Below, in pieces: positions 16,733-24,136 of a stretch of DNA of 64,000 nucleotides. The stretch's first letter is position 1. Every line of letters begins with the position of its first letter. A program made the position numbers and the translations under genes. The notes under the pieces are model-generated. The model saw nothing but the letters and a program-made list of their open reading frames with translations, was not told the DNA's origin and did no database searches. This stretch comes from Evansella sp. LMS18 (GTDB taxonomy: Bacteria; Bacillota; Bacilli; Bacillales; Salisediminibacteriaceae), in contig NZ_CP093301.1 in NCBI RefSeq assembly GCF_024362785.1, positions 2,294,001 to 2,358,000 of the forward strand, given 5' to 3'.

Positions 16733-16893
16733 GTTTTCATGAGTAGCTTAGTTTGGCGAAATTTTTAAATAATTATTTGGTGTTTAGCAAAAATCTCCGT
16801 TATATAAGCATCCATATCACCTTCAATATGATAAAATAATACTAAAATATACCAATTGCGAGATTGGTTTTATTAAGAAACGTGGTGAATAAA

Positions 16894-18846
16894 TTGATCG
16901 TTTACGAAGCAACAAAATCGGAATTTCTTAAAGACGTGTTTGCGGACAAGCTGGTCCAGCACATTCAGGATAATTATGAAGCAAAGGTCGGCCGGATTAA
17001 TGAGAGTGAGGTCCGTTCCTGGGACAACTCCATGCAGTATATGTATCGTGTTTTGATGGATCAGGAAATTCCTGAGGACGCTGGCGTTGCAATAGAGTTC
17101 AAGATCCCTTATACGTCCAAGCGGGTGGATATGCTTATTTCAGGCTATGAAAAAGACCGGCGTGGATCTGTAGTAATTGTTGAGCTGAAGCAATGGGACA
17201 AGGTGGAAAAGATCGTCGGGAAAGAAGCTATTGTTAAAACTAAATTCAGGCACGGTCTTACGGAGACTACACATCCGTCCTATCAGGCCTGGTCTTATGC
17301 AGCTCTAATTGAGGACTATAATGAAAACGCTCAAAAAGAGGATCTTCAGCTTTATCCATGTGCTTATTTACATAATTACATCCATCAAAAAGAAAATGAC
17401 CCTCTGACAGATCCAATATATGAGTTTTATGTGGAGAAGGCACCTGTGTTTTTAAAAGGCGATGCCCAGAAACTCCGTGATTTTATTAAGCGGTATATCC
17501 ATACTGGGGACCAGAAGAAAAACCTTTATGAGATTGAAAAAGGAAGAATACGTCCTTCCAAGTCGCTTCAGGATGCTCTCAGCAAAATGCTGAAAGGCAA
17601 CCGGGAATTTGTCATGATAGATGACCAAAAAGTCGTTTATGAGACGGCATTGCAGCTGGCAAACCAAGCGTTGAGAACAAAGACGAAGGAAGTTTTAGTG
17701 ATCGAAGGTGGACCAGGAACCGGGAAGTCTGTCCTGGCAATTAACCTGCTGGTTGAGATGACTAAGCGCGGACTCGTAAGCCAGTATGTTACTAAGAACG
17801 CTGCTCCAAGAAACATTTATGCCGCAAAATTAAAGCAGGATTTCCGTAAAGGCCATATCGATAATCTGTTTAAAGGATCCGGCTCGTATATTGACGCTCC
17901 ACGTGATGAGTTCGATTGCCTCATTGTAGATGAAGCCCATCGTTTGAACGAAAAATCAGGTATGTTCTCACACCTGGGGGAGAACCAGACAAAGGAAATC
18001 ATGGCCGCTTCCAAGCTGGCGATTTACTTTATAGACGAACGGCAGAGAGTAACTCTTAAGGATGCCGGAAGCATAGATGAGATTAAACATTTTGCCGAGG
18101 CAGAAGGGGCTAACGTGACAACAATGAAGCTGGAGTCACAGTTCAGATGCAATGGCTCAGACGGTTACCTGGCTTGGGTGGACGATGTATTGCAGATCCG
18201 GGAAACAGCAAACACGCATCATATGGGAGCAACCTACGACTTCAGAGTATATTCAGACCCGAATGAACTAAGAGAAGAAATTACCAAGCTTAATGAGAAA
18301 AACAATAAAGCCAGGCTTGTAGCAGGCTACTGCTGGAACTGGGCAAAGGAAGGGAAAGCAGATCCAAATCATTATGATATCGTGCTTGAAGAAACGGGCT
18401 TTGCAATGAGCTGGAACTTGGACAACACTGCTACGTGGGCGATTGATACAGAGTCCGTGAACGAGATTGGCTGCATCCATACTTCCCAAGGATTGGAGTT
18501 CGACTATGTCGGTGTCATTATCGGAGATGACCTGGGTTACAGGGACGGACAAGTTATCACCGATCCAACCAAACGGGCTAAGACAGATAATTCCCTACGC
18601 GGATTAAAGAAAATGCAAAAAGAAGACCCGGAAAAAGCAGCAAAGCTGGCTGACGAAATAATCCGGAACACTTACCGCACCTTAATGACCCGAGGACAAA
18701 AAGGCTGTTTCATTTACTGTACTGATATAGACCTGGAGAAGTACTTTAGAGAACGCCTGGAAAAGGTGAAGTTTGAGTACGCGGAGAATGAATTTTTTAA
18801 ACCGGTGTCGAAAGTGGCAGAAAAATGTGAGAAATACAAGAAATAG
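16894..18846 (+). CDS. DUF2075 nuclease-helicase fusion (defence-type)
   Basis: About 650 residues. The N-terminal 180 residues contain a PD-(D/E)XK-like core: SKRVDMLISGY supplies the Asp and VVIVELKQWDKV the E-x-K. The rest is a superfamily 1-type DUF2075 ATPase with Walker A IEGGPGTGKSVLAINLL, Walker B CLIVDEAHRLN, FIDERQRVTL, a QFRCNGSDGY motif and the C-terminal helicase signature IHTSQGLEFDYVGVIIGDD plus NTYRTLMTRGQKG. The TTG at 16894 is preferred over the one at 16864: GGTG lies upstream and the protein then starts MIVYEATKSEF, as I recall for relatives. It lies 31 bp upstream of the CBASS operon and may share transcription with it. Its base composition is closer to the host genes. 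Confidence 0.82.
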   Translation: MIVYEATKSEFLKDVFADKLVQHIQDNYEAKVGRINESEVRSWDNSMQYMYRVLMDQEIPEDAGVAIEFKIPYTSKRVDMLISGYEKDRRGSVVIVELKQWDKVEKIVGKEAIVKTKFRHGLTETTHPSYQAWSYAALIEDYNENAQKEDLQLYPCAYLHNYIHQKENDPLTDPIYEFYVEKAPVFLKGDAQKLRDFIKRYIHTGDQKKNLYEIEKGRIRPSKSLQDALSKMLKGNREFVMIDDQKVVYETALQLANQALRTKTKEVLVIEGGPGTGKSVLAINLLVEMTKRGLVSQYVTKNAAPRNIYAAKLKQDFRKGHIDNLFKGSGSYIDAPRDEFDCLIVDEAHRLNEKSGMFSHLGENQTKEIMAASKLAIYFIDERQRVTLKDAGSIDEIKHFAEAEGANVTTMKLESQFRCNGSDGYLAWVDDVLQIRETANTHHMGATYDFRVYSDPNELREEITKLNEKNNKARLVAGYCWNWAKEGKADPNHYDIVLEETGFAMSWNLDNTATWAIDTESVNEIGCIHTSQGLEFDYVGVIIGDDLGYRDGQVITDPTKRAKTDNSLRGLKKMQKEDPEKAAKLADEIIRNTYRTLMTRGQKGCFIYCTDIDLEKYFRERLEKVKFEYAENEFFKPVSKVAEKCEKYKK

Positions 18847-18877
18847 CTATTTAAACAAAAAAATAAGTGGTGAGGGA

Positions 18878-19456
18878 ATGAACGATTATAAAAATGAATT
18901 AAAGAAAATTAAAAGCAAGGCAGAGAAAAGCCGTCAAGCTCATTTCGATTTAGCAGAGAAAAAATCACTATTGAGAGATATTTTACATTACATAACCCTT
19001 ATTTTAAGTAGCTTTGTAGCAATATTAACTTTTGCAGATTATCAAAGATTTTTGCCCATTATACCTAATCTAACTCAAGATAATTTTGTTTTAGGTGTGG
19101 GGTTTCTAGCTTCATTTGTTTTTTTATTGACAGTAACTGAGGAATTCAAAAGATGGGGGGAAGAGGCCCAGCAACATCTTTATACAGGTAAACAATTGAC
19201 TTCATTAATTAGGGACTGTGATAGTTTAATAAAAAATGAAAGCTTACTAGAAGGAGCTGTCACTAATATAAGAGAAAAGTATATTCTAATTAATGAGCTC
19301 TCTCCTCCAATTCCAGATAAGGAATTTCTAAAGGCTAAACAAAGATATCTTAATAAACGTGCTATAAGTGAGTACTTAGATGAGCACCCACATTTGACTG
19401 TGGGAGAGGCTAAAAAAAGGATATTAAAAGGCAGGGGGGATAAAGAGGATGAATAA
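18878..19456 (+). CDS. SLATT-type two-transmembrane CBASS effector
   Basis: A 192-residue protein starting at the ATG eight codons after the island's AT-rich shift, with GTGAGGG upstream. A basic helical N terminus (about 40 residues) precedes two membrane helices (DILHYITLILSSFVAILTF, about 36-54; FVLGVGFLASFVFLLTV, about 69-85), then a long charged coiled-coil-like C terminus rich in Lys/Glu. This matches SLATT, the SMODS- and SLOG-associating two-TM effector group. The expected role is to oligomerise or open in the membrane when bound by the cyclic nucleotide signal, killing or arresting the infected cell. The QueC-like gene overlaps its end by eight bases. Confidence 0.78.
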   Translation: MNDYKNELKKIKSKAEKSRQAHFDLAEKKSLLRDILHYITLILSSFVAILTFADYQRFLPIIPNLTQDNFVLGVGFLASFVFLLTVTEEFKRWGEEAQQHLYTGKQLTSLIRDCDSLIKNESLLEGAVTNIREKYILINELSPPIPDKEFLKAKQRYLNKRAISEYLDEHPHLTVGEAKKRILKGRGDKEDE

Positions 19457-20024
19457 TAAAACTGTGACTATCTTGCTAAGTGGTGGGCTAGACTCTACCG
19501 CCTTAATTAAATTTTATAAACTTAAAGGTTATACAGTAAAAGGAATTCACTTTCAGTATGGGCAATCTACTGCGAAAACAGAACTAAAAAGCGTTAAAAA
19601 TATTTCGGAATATTACGATCTCGAGGTGGTGGTGAAAAATATAGGTTTTAAAATGAATACGGTAAATAATGAGGTCTTGTGTAGGAATGGTATTTTTATT
19701 TTCTCTGCTGCTACTTCCTTTGAAGTTGAAGATAGTAATACTCTAGCAATAGGAATACATAGTGGTACCCCTTACTATGATTGTAGCGAAGAATTTGTAT
19801 TCGATAGTCAAAAGATTCTTGATGGATATTTTGGGGGTACTTTACTACTTGAAGCTCCTTTTATTCATTCAACTAAGGAAGAAATATTTAAATTTATTCT
19901 TCATGAAGGAATACCTGTACATCTAACTTATAGTTGTGAAAAACGAGAGTTTTCTGAATGTGGGAAGTGTTTGTCCTGTTTGGATAGGAGGTATTTAGTT
20001 AGTGAATATAAAAAATATATGTAA
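19449..20024 (+). CDS. cap9: QueC-like CBASS protein (Cap9)
   Basis: A 191-residue relative of QueC (7-cyano-7-deazaguanine synthase), shorter than housekeeping QueC at about 220. The ATP-pyrophosphatase loop ILLSGGLDST is intact (about residues 8-17), and four Zn-type cysteines are present in SCEKREFSECGKCLSCLDRR. No other queuosine genes (queD, queE, queF) lie nearby. In type IV CBASS, Cap9 is reported to attach a 7-amido-7-deazaguanine to the N-terminal glycine of the CD-NTase rather than make free preQ0. Overlaps with both neighbours indicate translational coupling. Confidence 0.88.
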   Translation: MNNKTVTILLSGGLDSTALIKFYKLKGYTVKGIHFQYGQSTAKTELKSVKNISEYYDLEVVVKNIGFKMNTVNNEVLCRNGIFIFSAATSFEVEDSNTLAIGIHSGTPYYDCSEEFVFDSQKILDGYFGGTLLLEAPFIHSTKEEIFKFILHEGIPVHLTYSCEKREFSECGKCLSCLDRRYLVSEYKKYM

Positions 20025-20988
20025 AAAAAGAATTATAAACAAAGCTAATATAAAAACTCCTTTAATAGTACCCTCATTCTCCAGTAAGGGGTTTGAAGAT
20101 ATAGCGGAGATTCATGATTATGTTAAAGAATTTATAACAGAAGCTTCGTTAGTAAGTGCGTATGATTTATATTATGATAACATACCTAAACAAGGCCAAG
20201 ACATTTACATTTCAGATATATTATTTATTGATAGTGGTGGGTTTGAAAGAGATCAAGATACTGAGCTTTCAGAATTATACCCTACCACTTATATCTCAAG
20301 TGAATGGAATAAAGATATACACTCTGAAGTCATTCAGAAGATTGAAGGGTACACTCAGATAGTTATTGTTAATTTTGATTCTAAAGAGAGAAAGACTATC
20401 GAAAAACAAATCACAGAAGCGAGTGAATTGTTTGATGTGCATCCTAATTTTATTTCTGATTTTTTATGCAAGCCAGAAGAGGTAAATCAGGATTACATAA
20501 ATGTAAATAAAATTATAATGCAGATTAACAATCTCTCCCATTTTTCTATTTTAGGCTTTACAGAAAAAGAGTTAGGAAATTCTGTTCTCAAAAGGTGCAG
20601 TTCAATTTATAGAATTAGGAAGGCTCTGTATGAGAATAATCTAGACGTGCCAATTCATATTTTTGGGTGTATTGACCCGTTAAATATTCTTGCTTATTTC
20701 CTTTGTGGAGCTGATATCTTTGATGGATTATCCTGGCTAAGATTTAAATTTACAAACAGTGGTGAGGCTGTTTATCGAAATTCGCATGCTCTTTCAAATG
20801 GAGATTGGGCTTCTAGCGATAATATGTTAAGGGCAAAAACATATGCTGATAATATTGATATATTAATTAAACTATCCACTAAGATGCACCGTTACTTAAA
20901 TACTTATAATTGGGATTCTTTAGATTTACCTTCGGATACTCTAAATGAACTTCAAAAGCTTGTAAGTAATGTTGGTATTAATTATTAA
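20002..20988 (+). CDS. cap10: TGT-like CBASS protein (Cap10)
   Basis: A 328-residue relative of tRNA-guanine transglycosylase. DILFIDSGGFE (about 70-80) matches the TGT DSGGFQ substrate loop, and FGCIDPLNILAYFLCGADIFDGLSW (split here: FGCIDPLNILAY, then CGADIFDGLSW, about 222-246) matches the strand with the catalytic Asp of TGT (DMFDCV). The C-terminal Zn-binding CxCxxC...H cluster of true TGT is absent. Loss of the Zn site with retention of the active-site strand points to a repurposed enzyme acting on the deazaguanine-protein step. GTG start with GGAGG ten bases upstream; overlaps Cap9 by 23 bases. Confidence 0.84.
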   Translation: MNIKNICKKRIINKANIKTPLIVPSFSSKGFEDIAEIHDYVKEFITEASLVSAYDLYYDNIPKQGQDIYISDILFIDSGGFERDQDTELSELYPTTYISSEWNKDIHSEVIQKIEGYTQIVIVNFDSKERKTIEKQITEASELFDVHPNFISDFLCKPEEVNQDYINVNKIIMQINNLSHFSILGFTEKELGNSVLKRCSSIYRIRKALYENNLDVPIHIFGCIDPLNILAYFLCGADIFDGLSWLRFKFTNSGEAVYRNSHALSNGDWASSDNMLRAKTYADNIDILIKLSTKMHRYLNTYNWDSLDLPSDTLNELQKLVSNVGINY

Positions 20989-21003
20989 TGGGGAGTGATC
21001 TTT

Positions 21004-21930
21004 ATGGGCGGAAGCGGTGGATTTTTTAAACCTCCAACTGACTCAATTGACAAACTAGTGGATCAATATAAGACAAAGGAGTCAACGGAGCAATTTACCC
21101 GTGAAATAAATGCATATCTTAAATCTTTACTTACCCAATATAATAATCGTGATATAGAGGCAATTAGCGGACATCTTGATTGGCTAAAAAAAATCCTTGG
21201 TAAAGACCTTGAAGGCTATTTAGAAATGAAATATGGAGGTTCAGTAAGTAAGCATACTTATGTAAATGGATTAAGTGATGTAGATATCTTAGTAACAATA
21301 AATGAATCATCTTTGAAAAATGTAGACCCCAAAGGTGTAATTAAATACTTTGCGGAAACTTTAAGAGCAAGACTACCGAGAACTGTAATTTCAGAAGGGA
21401 AACTTGCAGTTACAGTTAAATATGCAGATGGACACGAAATTCAGTTGCTCCCTTGTATATCAAGTGACAAGGGGATTAAGATATCCTCCTCAAATGGTAC
21501 TGAATGGAGTAAAATTATAAAGCCTTTTAAATTTGCAGAAAAGTTGACAGAGGTTAATAGAAGAAATAGTGGAAGAGTAGTCCCAGTGATAAAGTTATTT
21601 AAAGCGATTAATAATTCATTAAATAAGCAATTAAGGCTTACAGGTTATCATATCGAGTCTCTAGCAATTGAGGCTTTTAAATCTTACAAAGGAAATGTAA
21701 CTTATCACGATATGCTAAAGCATCTTGTAAGCAGTGCAAGTGAAAAAGTATTAAAGCCTATAACTGATAAAACTGGTCAATCCATCCATGTAGACGATTA
21801 TTTGGAGAGTTCTGGAAGTTTAAAAAGAATGCAATATAGCAAGAATTTACAGAGAATTCATAATAAAATGAAGCGAGCAGAAGCTACTCAATCTCTTGTT
21901 CAGTGGGAGATATTATTCGATGATAAATAA
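21004..21930 (+). CDS. cdn: CD-NTase (cGAS/DncV-like nucleotidyltransferase) of type IV CBASS
   Basis: A 308-residue CD-NTase. The nucleotidyltransferase signature is complete at the first two acids: YGGSVSKHT followed by LSDVDILVTI (about 76-97). A later strand reads HEIQLLPC where the third metal-binding acid is expected. The helical C-terminal half resembles OAS/SMODS domains. The ATG at 21004 has GGGGAG eight bases upstream, so the protein begins MGGSGGFF; Met removal would leave N-terminal glycine, the reported Cap9 conjugation site. A GTG at 20995 overlaps the ribosome site. It should make a cyclic oligonucleotide on phage infection to trigger the SLATT effector. Last gene of the operon. 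Confidence 0.9.
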   Translation: MGGSGGFFKPPTDSIDKLVDQYKTKESTEQFTREINAYLKSLLTQYNNRDIEAISGHLDWLKKILGKDLEGYLEMKYGGSVSKHTYVNGLSDVDILVTINESSLKNVDPKGVIKYFAETLRARLPRTVISEGKLAVTVKYADGHEIQLLPCISSDKGIKISSSNGTEWSKIIKPFKFAEKLTEVNRRNSGRVVPVIKLFKAINNSLNKQLRLTGYHIESLAIEAFKSYKGNVTYHDMLKHLVSSASEKVLKPITDKTGQSIHVDDYLESSGSLKRMQYSKNLQRIHNKMKRAEATQSLVQWEILFDDK

Positions 21931-22059
21931 CAGTAGAAACTTGAAATTATATACTTTTTAGTGGAGAAAGAATCCATTAGATAATGACGAAGAGGTAATT
22001 GTGAGTTATAAATAAACATATAATTAAGGTTAATTTAACTAAGTGAATTTTGTCTATCA

Positions 22060-22085
22060 AGATCGGTTAGCCGGTCTTTTTTTTA
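22060..22085 (+). terminator. Rho-independent terminator of the CBASS operon
   Basis: 7-bp stem with one G-U pair (22060-22066 with 22071-22077), 4-nt loop, followed by T9, about 130 bp after the CD-NTase stop. Confidence 0.75.
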
Positions 22086-22170
22086 TTTCCCCAACCCCAC
22101 CCCCTCCTTTTTACCCCTAAACATGTACATGTCTTATGAAAGGCCAAAAAATGTTAAAGGGGTTGTTAAT

Positions 22171-23124
22171 GTGATGGAAACGAGGAAAATGCTGCGGTCG
22201 GTGATTAAGGAAGAGTTCATTATGCTGACGGGGGATTACCGGCTGGCGCTGGTGCTGAACCAGATGCTGTACTGGTCCCAGTTTACGAAGGATTTTGATC
22301 ATTTTATTGAAGAGGAGCGTAAGCGCCGGAACGATCCGGACCTCGAGACGTGCAATGGCTGGATCTTTAAGACGGCAGAGGAGCTGTCGGAGGAAACGAT
22401 GCTGAATGTAGCTGTGAAGACAATGCGACACTACCTGAAAACGCTCGTTGCCAGCGGCTGGCTTTCCGAACGAAGAAATCCTCACCACAGCTGGGACCAT
22501 ACGAGGCAGTACCGGGTGAACCTTGGAAAGCTGCAGAAGGATCTGCTGGAAATCGGCTTCTTCCTTGACGGGTACAGAGTGGATCTGAACTTCCTGAGAG
22601 AAGAACTTCAGATCGAACCGCCGGTACATTATGACGATCACTTGATTATTCTTGAAGAATTCGACTTCGATGAGGCTGAAAGCCTCGACATTCCGTTTGC
22701 CGTTGAAGACGAAAATGTAAAAACCACTGCCCCTGAGGAAAACTCCACAAGGAAAAACGAAACTACGAATGTGCAGAATGCCACTACAATACCAGAGATT
22801 ACTTCAGAGACTACAACAGAAATAACAAAAGAACATATAGCCGGAATCGTCGATTACCTGAACGAACAAACAGGGAAGAACTTTCAGGCGAAAACGGCAA
22901 AAACACAGAGCCTTATACAGGCAAGATGGAAAGAAGGCCATCAAGTCGAAGACTTTAAAAAAGTCATCGATACGAAAACAGCCAACTGGCTGGAGGACCC
23001 GGAAATGAACAAGTTCCTCCGCCCGGAAACATTATTTGGCACGAAGTTCGAATCGTATTTATACGAGCGTGGCAGTGAAAACAGAGATACCGAGTTCGAG
23101 CGTTATCTCACAGGGCTGGCCTGA
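22171..23124 (+). CDS. Phage replication initiation protein with conserved phage C-terminal domain
   Basis: About 317 residues. The N-terminal 120 residues form a winged-helix module (LTGDYRLALVLNQMLYWSQF; DPDLETCNGWIFKTAEELSE; MLNVAVKTMRHYLKTLVASG), as in replisome organisers of Bacillus phages. A long acidic, Thr-rich linker follows, and the C-terminal 80 residues (IVDYLNEQTGKNFQAKT through LRPETLFGTKFESYL) match the TIGR02220-type phage domain. AAAGGGG lies eight bases before a GTG that is adjacent to an ATG, so the start is 22171 or 22174. It is the first gene of a phage-type replication cassette: organiser, loader, helicase. Confidence 0.85.
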   Translation: MMETRKMLRSVIKEEFIMLTGDYRLALVLNQMLYWSQFTKDFDHFIEEERKRRNDPDLETCNGWIFKTAEELSEETMLNVAVKTMRHYLKTLVASGWLSERRNPHHSWDHTRQYRVNLGKLQKDLLEIGFFLDGYRVDLNFLREELQIEPPVHYDDHLIILEEFDFDEAESLDIPFAVEDENVKTTAPEENSTRKNETTNVQNATTIPEITSETTTEITKEHIAGIVDYLNEQTGKNFQAKTAKTQSLIQARWKEGHQVEDFKKVIDTKTANWLEDPEMNKFLRPETLFGTKFESYLYERGSENRDTEFERYLTGLA

Positions 23125-23127
23125 ACG

Positions 23128-23409
23128 ATGGATAAGCAGGAAACAGCAAAGTTGCTCGAGCAGATCAACTCCTTTTTTCCCGGAAGGGTTGTTCTTAGCG
23201 GTTCAACGGTGGAGGCGTGGCAGCGGGTGCTGGCCTCCCAGGAATACGGCACTGTGATGAAGCGGCTGGACAAATATGTTGTCCACTCTAAATTCCCGCC
23301 TACGGTGCATGACCTGGCAGAGCGGGCCCGCCCGGAGTTCCGTCGGGATGCGCTTTCTGAAATTGAGGATTGGGAGCTGATGGCCAGTGGTGTTCCAGGG
23401 GAATTTTGA
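23128..23409 (+). CDS. Phage helicase loader/inhibitor (SPP1 G39P-like)
   Basis: A 93-residue protein with an N-terminal helical bundle (KQETAKLLEQINSFFPG, then VEAWQRVLASQEYGTVMKRL) and an HSKFPPTVHDLAE stretch, as in proteins that deliver and hold phage replicative helicase, such as SPP1 gp39. Its place between a replisome organiser (3-base gap) and a DnaB-type helicase (overlap of 23 bases) is the standard order. With the helicase truncated it has probably lost its partner. Confidence 0.8.
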   Translation: MDKQETAKLLEQINSFFPGRVVLSGSTVEAWQRVLASQEYGTVMKRLDKYVVHSKFPPTVHDLAERARPEFRRDALSEIEDWELMASGVPGEF

Positions 23410-24136
23410 AGCGGAGAAGCTGATGCTTGGGTGTATCCTTCTCGATAACTCTCTCGTGAAGCAGGTGGTGGTTCAGCCGGAGCAGATGTCGATTATGTAT
23501 CAGGGACTGTTGCGGGCGATGCTTGAGATCGGCGGCCCGGGAGAGGTGATCAACCGGGCGACATTGCATGAAAAGCTAGGCACGTCACATATGGCGCAGC
23601 TCGATTTAGGCGAAATGATGGAAGGGGTGCCGTCGGTAAAAGGGTACAAGCTGTATGAAAAGCTGGTCATGAATGCGTGGAAGCGGGGTGAAATAAGGCG
23701 GCTTGCGGAAGAGATGCTTATGGCTCCGGATGAGGTGGATATCCGCACTGGGGAGGACCGGGTGGATGTCTTCCTGAGGGAGGCCCAGCAGTTTGGGAGT
23801 CTGGAGGCTGCGGCTGAGGAGTTTGATTTACGGGGGACACTTGATGCCATGTATGAGCAGGCAGTGAAGGGGGAGAGGCCATCCGGTCTGCTCACCGGGT
23901 ACCGGGATTATGACCGGCTCACGAACGGGCATGGGAAAGGGCAGTTTATTATTGACGCGGCGAGGCCGTCGGTTGGGAAGACGGCGTTTGCGCTGAATGT
24001 CGCGGCAGGTCATTTGCACATGGGAGCCGGGGCGGACAGGGGAGCAGGGTGCAGATATAGTGGCGTAAACCAACCGCATTCTTCTGCAGGTTGGTTTCTT
24101 CTTCCTGAAATTTTACGATTGCCTCTGTTACTATAA
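23387..24136 (+). pseudogene. Truncated phage replicative DnaB helicase
   Basis: The GTG-started frame encodes a DnaB N-terminal domain (NFEAEKLMLGCILLDNSLV, then the helical collar) and enters the RecA-like ATPase with LTGYRDYDRLTNG and Walker A RPSVGKTAFALN. Just after that (about nucleotide 24030) similarity to helicases stops and about 35 unrelated residues run to a stop at 24136. A normal phage DnaB is about 420-450 residues, so Walker B, the arginine finger and the DNA-binding loops are missing. The junction lies about 40 bp before a hairpin repeat that recurs at 28046. Very likely a non-functional prophage remnant. Confidence 0.85.
24068..24104 (+). repeat. Hairpin repeat, copy 1
   Basis: 37-nt sequence with an 8-bp stem (AACCAACC 24068-24075 with GGTTGGTT 24089-24096) and a TTCTTCTTC-rich tail. 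A near-identical 38-nt copy lies at 28046-28083. It sits at the broken end of the helicase gene and may act as a terminator. Confidence 0.7.

What the first reader, a model, noticed from the sequence alone, without database searches (positions are those of the whole stretch)
18878..21930. Type IV CBASS operon with QueC-like and TGT-like proteins
Seen: four overlapping or tightly packed genes, SLATT-type two-TM effector, QueC-like protein with SGGLDST and a Zn-cysteine cluster, TGT-like protein and a CD-NTase with GGS...SDVD. Their base composition is visibly AT-richer than the flanks. Known: type IV CBASS combines a CD-NTase with Cap9 (QueC-like) and Cap10 (TGT-like), and Cap9 is reported to conjugate a deazaguanine to the CD-NTase. 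Inferred: a horizontally acquired antiphage system in a Bacillaceae genome, here without Cap11/Cap12 (OGG/N-glycosylase) genes.
Basis: partly seen in the sequence, partly recalled or inferred. Interest (0 to 1): 0.9.

Follow-up and report, generated by a model that had tools for sequence, protein, structure and literature searches.

The report
Type IV CBASS phage-defence operon
Four neighbouring bacterial genes form an intact-looking anti-phage alarm of a recently explained kind, in which an enzyme related to one of tRNA-base synthesis is thought to tag the alarm enzyme with a modified base; the operon itself is ordinary for its kind, but some distant relatives may tag a different immune protein.

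Summary
Window 18878-21930 holds four intact, tightly packed, AT-rich genes: a two-TM SLATT effector, a QueC-like Cap9, a TGT-like Cap10 and a CD-NTase. The last three match solved type IV CBASS proteins (9nto, 9ntn; E 1e-30, 1e-49, 2e-67). Cap9 has 6 of 6 published motifs. The CD-NTase begins MGGSGG, the reported acceptor of N-terminal deazaguanylation. The genome has a separate queCDE operon and TGT. Best reading: a type IV CBASS, a new member of a known kind.

Additions: (1) It belongs to an effector-first Bacilli group without OGG: the OGG model hits 0 of 7 such genomes and 3 of 3 positive controls. (2) In a sister genome the same site (18822-22072) holds RNase H, RnlA and RnlB genes instead. 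(3) Outside the window, six rhizobial loci have Cap9-like, Cap10-like and DNA-lyase-like genes, no CD-NTase match, and a TIR-like protein that can start M-G-G-G in 6 of 6: possibly an undescribed system that deazaguanylates a TIR protein.

The parts
18878..19456 (+). SLATT-type two-transmembrane effector
   Evidence: PADLOC PDLC00684 2TM effector 5.7e-65; NCBIfam SLATT_4 54.5 bits, just under its cut-off of 55; two hydrophobic segments
19449..20024 (+). Cap9, QueC-like deazaguanylating enzyme
   Evidence: PADLOC QueC 2.1e-73; PDB 9nto_B Cap9 9.7e-31; 6 of 6 cluster-9 motifs
20002..20988 (+). [quoted passage not shown]
   Evidence: PADLOC TGT 5.4e-126; PDB 9ntn_A Cap10 9.5e-50; DSGG and FDGL kept; no CxCxxC motif in any of 50 Cap10 rows, window included
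21004..21930 (+). CD-NTase (CdnD-like) with N-terminal MGGSGG acceptor motif
   Evidence: PADLOC cyclase 1.4e-129; NCBIfam CBASS_cyclase_b 285 bits, cut-off 200; PDB 9ntn_G CdnD 1.6e-67
22059..22078 (+). terminator-like hairpin with T run after the CD-NTase, at the right edge of the cassette
   Evidence: 2 found, 2.3 expected in shuffles, so weak on its own; it spans the cassette edge
18822..22072 (.). exchangeable cassette: the stretch that differs between this genome and sister genome G017, between flanks 93-94% identical

Best explanation
The four genes are a type IV CBASS anti-phage system, intact by sequence. Proposed chain: (1) the CD-NTase loses its initiator Met and exposes Gly2 of MGGSGG. 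(2) Cap9, using ATP, joins 7-carboxy-7-deazaguanine (CDG), made by the host's QueD/QueE, to that glycine. (3) Cap10, a TGT-family protein without the zinc motif, binds the modified N-terminus instead of tRNA. (4) On phage infection the licensed CD-NTase makes a cyclic oligonucleotide of unknown identity. (5) The nucleotide activates the SLATT two-TM effector, which damages the membrane and stops infection by death or arrest. Shown here: gene identity, open frames, catalytic and acceptor motifs, host queCDE, conserved co-occurrence. Reported elsewhere for homologous systems (papers as seen): steps 1-3 and the need for Cap9, Cap10 and the modification. Steps 4-5 are inferred from CBASS in general (recalled).
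For: PADLOC names four of four genes; Cap9, Cap10 and CD-NTase have solved relatives. The residues after Met (GGSGG) equal the first five of the solved CdnD chain. PMC13279940 (passages) says the N-terminal MGGS motif is required for modification and G2 is the modified residue, and names Y115 and D117 of Cap9 as base contacts; the aligned window residues are Y109 and D111. Six of six Cap9 motifs. A Gly-following start is typical of the CD-NTase alone: 45 of 51 CD-NTase loci, against 8 of 55 Cap9, 2 of 58 Cap10 and 3 of 34 SLATT loci by the same permissive count. The genes are similar as a block: DNA similarity to the Halobacillus locus spans 18892-21893, apart from one 67-base match elsewhere. 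Separate queCDE and TGT in the genome.
Against: No expression, modification or phage assay. A profile comparison of the Cap10 family with the genome's single canonical TGT was not significant. CDG supply is not shown to be universal: of 49 Cap10 genomes searched, 36 matched the window genome's QueE; 43 of 50 genomes (own included) matched QueD/PTPS; five lacked both, four of them MAGs and one an isolate (Lysinibacillus macroides). No background rate in genomes without the system was measured. 6 of 51 CD-NTase loci have no Gly-following start in the tested range, nor does the Bacilli CD-NTase in L065, which was not among the 51 (its frame begins MSRGGKRMSGSGGG).
Confidence: 0.9

Rival explanations
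1. The QueC-like and TGT-like genes belong to queuosine (tRNA) biosynthesis and sit next to a CD-NTase by chance.
For: Pfam QueC above cut-off (97 bits) for Cap9; weak Pfam TGT match for Cap10, below cut-off.
Against: The genome has a canonical queC at C1:4052904 followed by queD and queE and a canonical TGT at C1:3250277. The cassette QueC scores 81 bits against a cut-off of 150 for the QueC equivalog model. Cap9, Cap10 and a CD-NTase lie together in loci of many phyla. Cap10 lacks the CxCxxC motif that the genome's TGT has.
Confidence: 0.02
2. The operon is a type IV CBASS by descent but inactive here (decayed cargo, or starved of CDG).
For: It sits beside phage-like genes of which the DnaB-like one is shorter than in the sister genome.
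Against: All four frames are open with ribosome-binding-like sequence upstream, all six Cap9 motifs and the CD-NTase GGS/SDVD motif are kept, and queD and queE are present in the genome.
Confidence: 0.05
3. Type IV CBASS in which Cap10 is an enzyme, for example removing or exchanging the base on the CD-NTase N-terminus (a reset or trigger), and not only a binder. This is a variant of the best explanation, not an alternative to its identity.
For: A DSGG motif is found in 48 of 50 and a [FA]DGL motif in 46 of 50 Cap10 rows; by recalled knowledge of canonical TGT these aspartates correspond to catalytic positions.
Against: [quoted passage not shown] no activity was tested here.
Confidence: 0.15

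Closest known systems
Type IV CBASS with Cap9/Cap10/CdnD (Wassarman et al. 2025, seen as preprint abstract; PDB 9ntn, 9nto)
   Same: Cap9, Cap10 and CD-NTase homologous over most of their length; same GGSGG N-terminus; base-contact residues aligned
   Different: Bacilli gene order with the effector first; no OGG match in window or genome. Whether the solved system has these features was not checked.
Halobacillus alkaliphilus type IV CBASS (L010)
   Same: Same four genes in the same order; Cap10 60% identical; nearest row of the tree
   Different: Different flanking genes (flagellin, a helicase-like protein), so apparently a different insertion site
qatABCD (QatB/QatC)
   Same: QueC-family enzyme with a partner whose N-terminal glycine motif is essential (PMC13279940, passages)
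   Different: No CD-NTase or Cap10 described there; the Cap9 here barely matches the QatC profile (E 0.0097, residues 164-182)
Rhizobial Cap9/Cap10/DNA-lyase/TIR loci (L009, L061, L063, L090-L092; found here, not a named system)
   Same: Cap9-like and Cap10-like genes with a protein that can start M-G-G-G
   Different: TIR-like protein and no CD-NTase match; three of six Cap9 motifs missing in the three tested; Cap10 fused to a TIR domain in four of six

Membership tests
Type IV CBASS | CD-NTase (oligonucleotide cyclase) gene | tested here: met
   PADLOC 1.4e-129; NCBIfam CBASS_cyclase_b over its cut-off; CdnD 1.6e-67
Type IV CBASS | QueC-like Cap9 with its signature motifs | tested here: met
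   6 of 6 motifs (motifs from PMC13329287); 9nto_B
Type IV CBASS | TGT-like Cap10 | tested here: met
   PADLOC 5.4e-126; 9ntn_A
Type IV CBASS | Effector gene | tested here: met
   2TM effector model 5.7e-65; two hydrophobic segments
Type IV CBASS | N-terminal MGGS acceptor motif on the CD-NTase | tested here: met
   MGGSGG from ATG 21004 with GGGGAG upstream
Type IV CBASS | OGG gene, present in part of the family | tested here: not met
   No hit in the window or genome. Not treated as defining: 28 of 54 related loci carry it; of the other 26, four end too early to judge (L014, L052, L054, L060) and two have a divergent lyase (L061, L063)
Type IV CBASS | N-terminal deazaguanylation and phage defence | not testable with these tools
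   Needs mass spectrometry and plaque assays
Queuosine biosynthesis genes | Canonical QueC equivalog score and queD/queE neighbours | tested here: not met
   81 bits against cut-off 150; the canonical operon is elsewhere
qatABCD | QatC profile over most of its length | tested here: not met
   Only residues 164-182, E 0.0097

The most novel reading that the evidence does not exclude
The Cap9/Cap10 pair is a portable protein-deazaguanylation module not tied to CBASS. In rhizobia it serves a TIR-based system: Cap9-like and Cap10-like proteins (Cap10 often fused to a TIR domain) plus a DNA-lyase-like protein modify the N-terminal glycine of a ThsB-like or TIR-fold protein, which takes the place of the CD-NTase. 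The window's operon would then be a minimal OGG-less member of a wider class of immune systems licensed by a modified base on the sensor's N-terminus.
Probability: 0.5. Interest if true: 0.78.

Novelty: new member of a known kind. Interest (0 to 1): 0.42.

Why it matters
For the window itself: a type IV CBASS of the OGG-less Bacilli group, in a genome with its own queCDE, is a simple four-gene system for asking what Cap10 and the tag do, and shows that OGG is not shared by the whole family. The presence of CBASS in one genome and RnlA/RnlB in a sister at one site shows turnover of cargo. For the relatives: a TIR protein with the same poly-glycine N-terminus beside Cap9-like and Cap10-like genes would widen protein deazaguanylation from CD-NTases (and, as proposed in print, QatB) to TIR proteins, and can be tested directly by mass spectrometry.

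Tried and rejected
Queuosine operon: rejected. qatABCD: rejected. Promoter scan of 18600-22200: 16 sites against 15.8 expected; terminator scan 2 against 2.3: both at chance; only the hairpin's place at the cassette edge is of note. Profile comparison of Cap10 with the genome's single TGT: not significant. CDG supply across hosts: 36 of 49 genomes matched the QueE query; TIGR04322 gave hits, below its cut-off, in 4 of the 13 negatives; 43 of 50 had PTPS. Phage records: no Cap10 match. The OGG search of the own genome alone had no ringing control; one search repeated it with three positives. Rows dropped before the tree: L003 and L006 (copies of the window locus) and L017, L026, L049, L052, L054, L058, L059, L060 (split, fused or cut). 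In that tree L014 is labelled OGG-less although its short CD-NTase frame ends about 100 bases before the end of the contig. The Science paper of 2025 and Millman et al. 2020 are not held; I saw only the preprint abstract of the first and nothing of the second. Structure prediction of Cap10 (A3) and a Foldseek search never ran because the machine was busy. The VIA-align look at the L063 model ties TIR proteins with nucleoside deoxyribosyltransferases, DNPH1 and sugar-isomerase domains, so it shows a fold class and does not single out TIR. In checking, one search corrected a statement I had planned: the L044 CD-NTase is full length, and its start may lie outside the range tested.
Full report
Observation. 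Four genes on the + strand are open and packed: effector 18878-19456, Cap9 19449-20024, Cap10 20002-20988 (GTG start after AGGAGG), CD-NTase 21004-21930. The ORF list gives longer frames for the effector (from 18773) and the CD-NTase (from 20995); I take the shorter starts because of the sequence upstream of them and, for the CD-NTase, because homologues begin MGGSGG or the like. PADLOC names all four with E-values from 5.7e-65 to 1.4e-129. The cassette is 32% GC in a 42% GC window, and third codon positions drop to 23-24%.

Identity. By sequence the proteins match solved structures: Cap10 9ntn_A (9.5e-50), Cap9 9nto_B (9.7e-31), CdnD 9ntn_G (1.6e-67); each was the only distinct PDB sequence below E 0.001. 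The solved CdnD chain begins GGSGG, exactly what remains of the window protein after loss of Met. The six motifs given for Cap9 (cluster 9) in PMC13329287 (passages) are all present in the window Cap9; over the 55 Cap9 rows tested, single motifs were kept in 46 to 55 rows. PMC13279940 (part 1 of 6 and passages) states that Cap9 conjugates CDG to the N-terminal glycine of its protein substrate, that G2 of the CD-NTase is modified, that a bulky, charged aspartate there prevents modification and blocks defence, and that Y115 and D117 of Cap9 hold the base; the window has Y109 and D111 at the aligned places (if the chain is numbered as in the paper). The abstract PMC11996544 says Cap9, Cap10 and the modification are essential for defence.

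Not queuosine genes. The genome has a canonical queC (280 bits to Pfam QueC) followed by queD and queE at about C1:4052832-4054772 (queD is also matched by PF01242; I named queE from its sequence and place, and it has matches at 61-68% identity in four Bacilli genomes). A canonical TGT lies at C1:3250277. So CDG can probably be made, and the cassette copies are extra.

The glycine N-terminus. With one permissive rule (any start codon from -10 to +30 codons whose next codon is Gly), 45 of 51 CD-NTase loci have such a start, against 8 of 55 for Cap9, 2 of 58 for Cap10 and 3 of 34 for SLATT. The six CD-NTase exceptions are L017, L036, L044, L047, L057 and L059. L059 is a fused remnant; the L044 frame is full length but begins some 40 codons before the matched region, so its start may lie outside the range tested; L017, L047 and L057 still have glycine-rich N-termini. 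The CD-NTase of L065, not among the 51, has no such start either.

Relatives. One scan of genome contigs (84,980 species by the tool's description) with a three-sequence Cap10 alignment gave 54 loci; L007, extended as L065, came and L008. The operon is rare: Cap10 in 1 of 35 genomes of the window's family (its own), 2 of 398 in its class, 1 match over at least 80% of the query among 72,556 plasmid records (3 records matched in all), none in 50,697 phage records. OGG is encoded in 28 of the 54 loci. Of the other 26, L014, L052, L054 and L060 end too early to judge, and L061 and L063 carry a divergent lyase. On a 50-row Cap10 tree the OGG label (the three rhizobial rows counted as OGG) needs 4 changes (shuffled mean 16.3, 0 of 500 as low); the seven Bacilli rows group together with modest support (82/74), and the window pairs with Halobacillus alkaliphilus (100/99). 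All seven Bacilli loci have the order effector, Cap9, Cap10, CD-NTase, in L065 with a further ORF between the last two; in none of the other loci listed with a SLATT match does it stand in front of Cap9. Genome-wide, the OGG model is absent from 7 of 7 Bacilli genomes and present in 3 of 3 positive controls. Absence of OGG here is therefore typical of the lineage, not a local loss.

Genomic site. The flanks are a Schlafen-type helicase (16864-18846) and phage-like replication genes (from 22123). Sister genome G017 has both flanks at 92.9% (16826-18821) and 94.0% (22073-24040) identity, but between them 3.0 kb of 30% GC DNA coding for an RNase H, RnlA and RnlB. In the stretches taken from G016 and G019 only the helicase matches. 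So 18822-22072 behaves as a unit that differs between sister genomes. That RnlA/RnlB acts against phages is recalled knowledge.

A related system outside the window. Searching plasmids with Cap10 showed rhizobial loci with Cap9-like and Cap10-like genes and no CD-NTase. Six were read: L009, L061, L063, L090, L091, L092. Profiles built here match a Cap10-like, a Cap9-like and a lyase-like frame in 6 of 6 and a CD-NTase in none of the six (the lyase profile was built from L009, L061 and L063 themselves). The QueC-like gene is followed directly by a small protein that starts M-G-G-G in 6 of 6; for L061 this uses an internal Met, the mechanical frame being longer. The L009 protein matches Pfam ThsB_TIR (7.3e-23) and PADLOC ThsB models. 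The L063 and L061 protein has no Pfam match above cut-off but aligns with the first kind over nearly its whole length, glycine tail included (hhalign probability 90%, E 1.7e-6); its model (mean pLDDT 79, residues 1-16 below 50) has a TIR/deoxyribosyltransferase-like fold. In L009 and L090-L092 the Cap10-like protein also carries a TIR domain by Pfam or annotation. Similar proteins occur on 13 rhizobial plasmid records, most with equal scores and so probably near-copies. The Cap9-like proteins of L009, L061 and L063 keep SGGxDS, YxQ(x)5E and RN but lack the other three motifs, with FPDQ where Cap9 has YxDC, so the chemistry may differ. Paper searches in the held library (listings seen) showed no title or abstract describing such a system; subscription papers are mostly not held, and only passages of a few papers were read.

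Mechanism and confidence. I take the published Cap9/Cap10 mechanism to hold here (about 0.9), since the sequence features tested agree. Effector action and nucleotide identity are inferred. Against a universal supply of CDG by the host stands Lysinibacillus macroides (L018, genome G440): a complete-looking operon, a canonical QueC, but no match to QueD or to either QueE query; completeness of that genome was not given.

Verdict. The finding is real and rightly read, but it is a known kind of system. What is worth following is the OGG-less Bacilli group as a minimal model, the exchange site, and above all the TIR-linked rhizobial loci.

Noticed in passing
L009:4140-7289; L061:7989-10674; L063:7461-10146; L090:4083-7238; L091:4501-7664; L092:4501-7663: Rhizobial operons with Cap10-like, DNA-lyase-like and Cap9-like genes and a TIR-like protein that can start M-G-G-G, without a CD-NTase match: a possible TIR-linked deazaguanylation system.
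   Followed up: partly
L086:8731-11161 (sister genome G017), same site as window 18822-22072: RNase H, RnlA and RnlB genes lie where the window has the CBASS operon, between flanks 93-94% identical.
   Followed up: yes
window 23387-24136: The phage-type DnaB gene is 249 aa here and 399 aa in sister genome G017; the BLAST match breaks at 24040/24041 with about 0.5 kb extra in G017.
   Followed up: no
window 16864-18846; L011:4722-6566; L086:11636-13587: A Schlafen-group helicase gene lies just upstream of the CBASS genes here and in the Bacillus sp. locus L011; in sister genome G017 the same gene stands without CBASS and reads as two frames.
   Followed up: no
L018 (genome G440, Lysinibacillus macroides): Complete-looking type IV CBASS and a canonical QueC but no match for QueD or QueE, so the source of the base is unclear.
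   Followed up: partly
L065:6819-8273: A 484-aa ORF, transposase-like by recall, lies between Cap10 and the CD-NTase in genome G408; that CD-NTase frame starts MSRGGKRMSGSGGG.
   Followed up: no
L019:9950-11308; L024:10065-11486; L026:9529-10278; L031:4688-5872: Three OGG-less cyanobacterial loci and one OGG-bearing Acidobacteriota locus (L031) carry other effector-like genes downstream: Cap17-like/TIR-model or CHAT-model matches.
   Followed up: no
L009:2895-4043; L090:2838-3989; L091:3253-4434; L092:3301-4434: A gene annotated as a carbohydrate (PfkB-type) kinase directly precedes the TIR-Cap10 gene in all four plasmid loci read.
   Followed up: no
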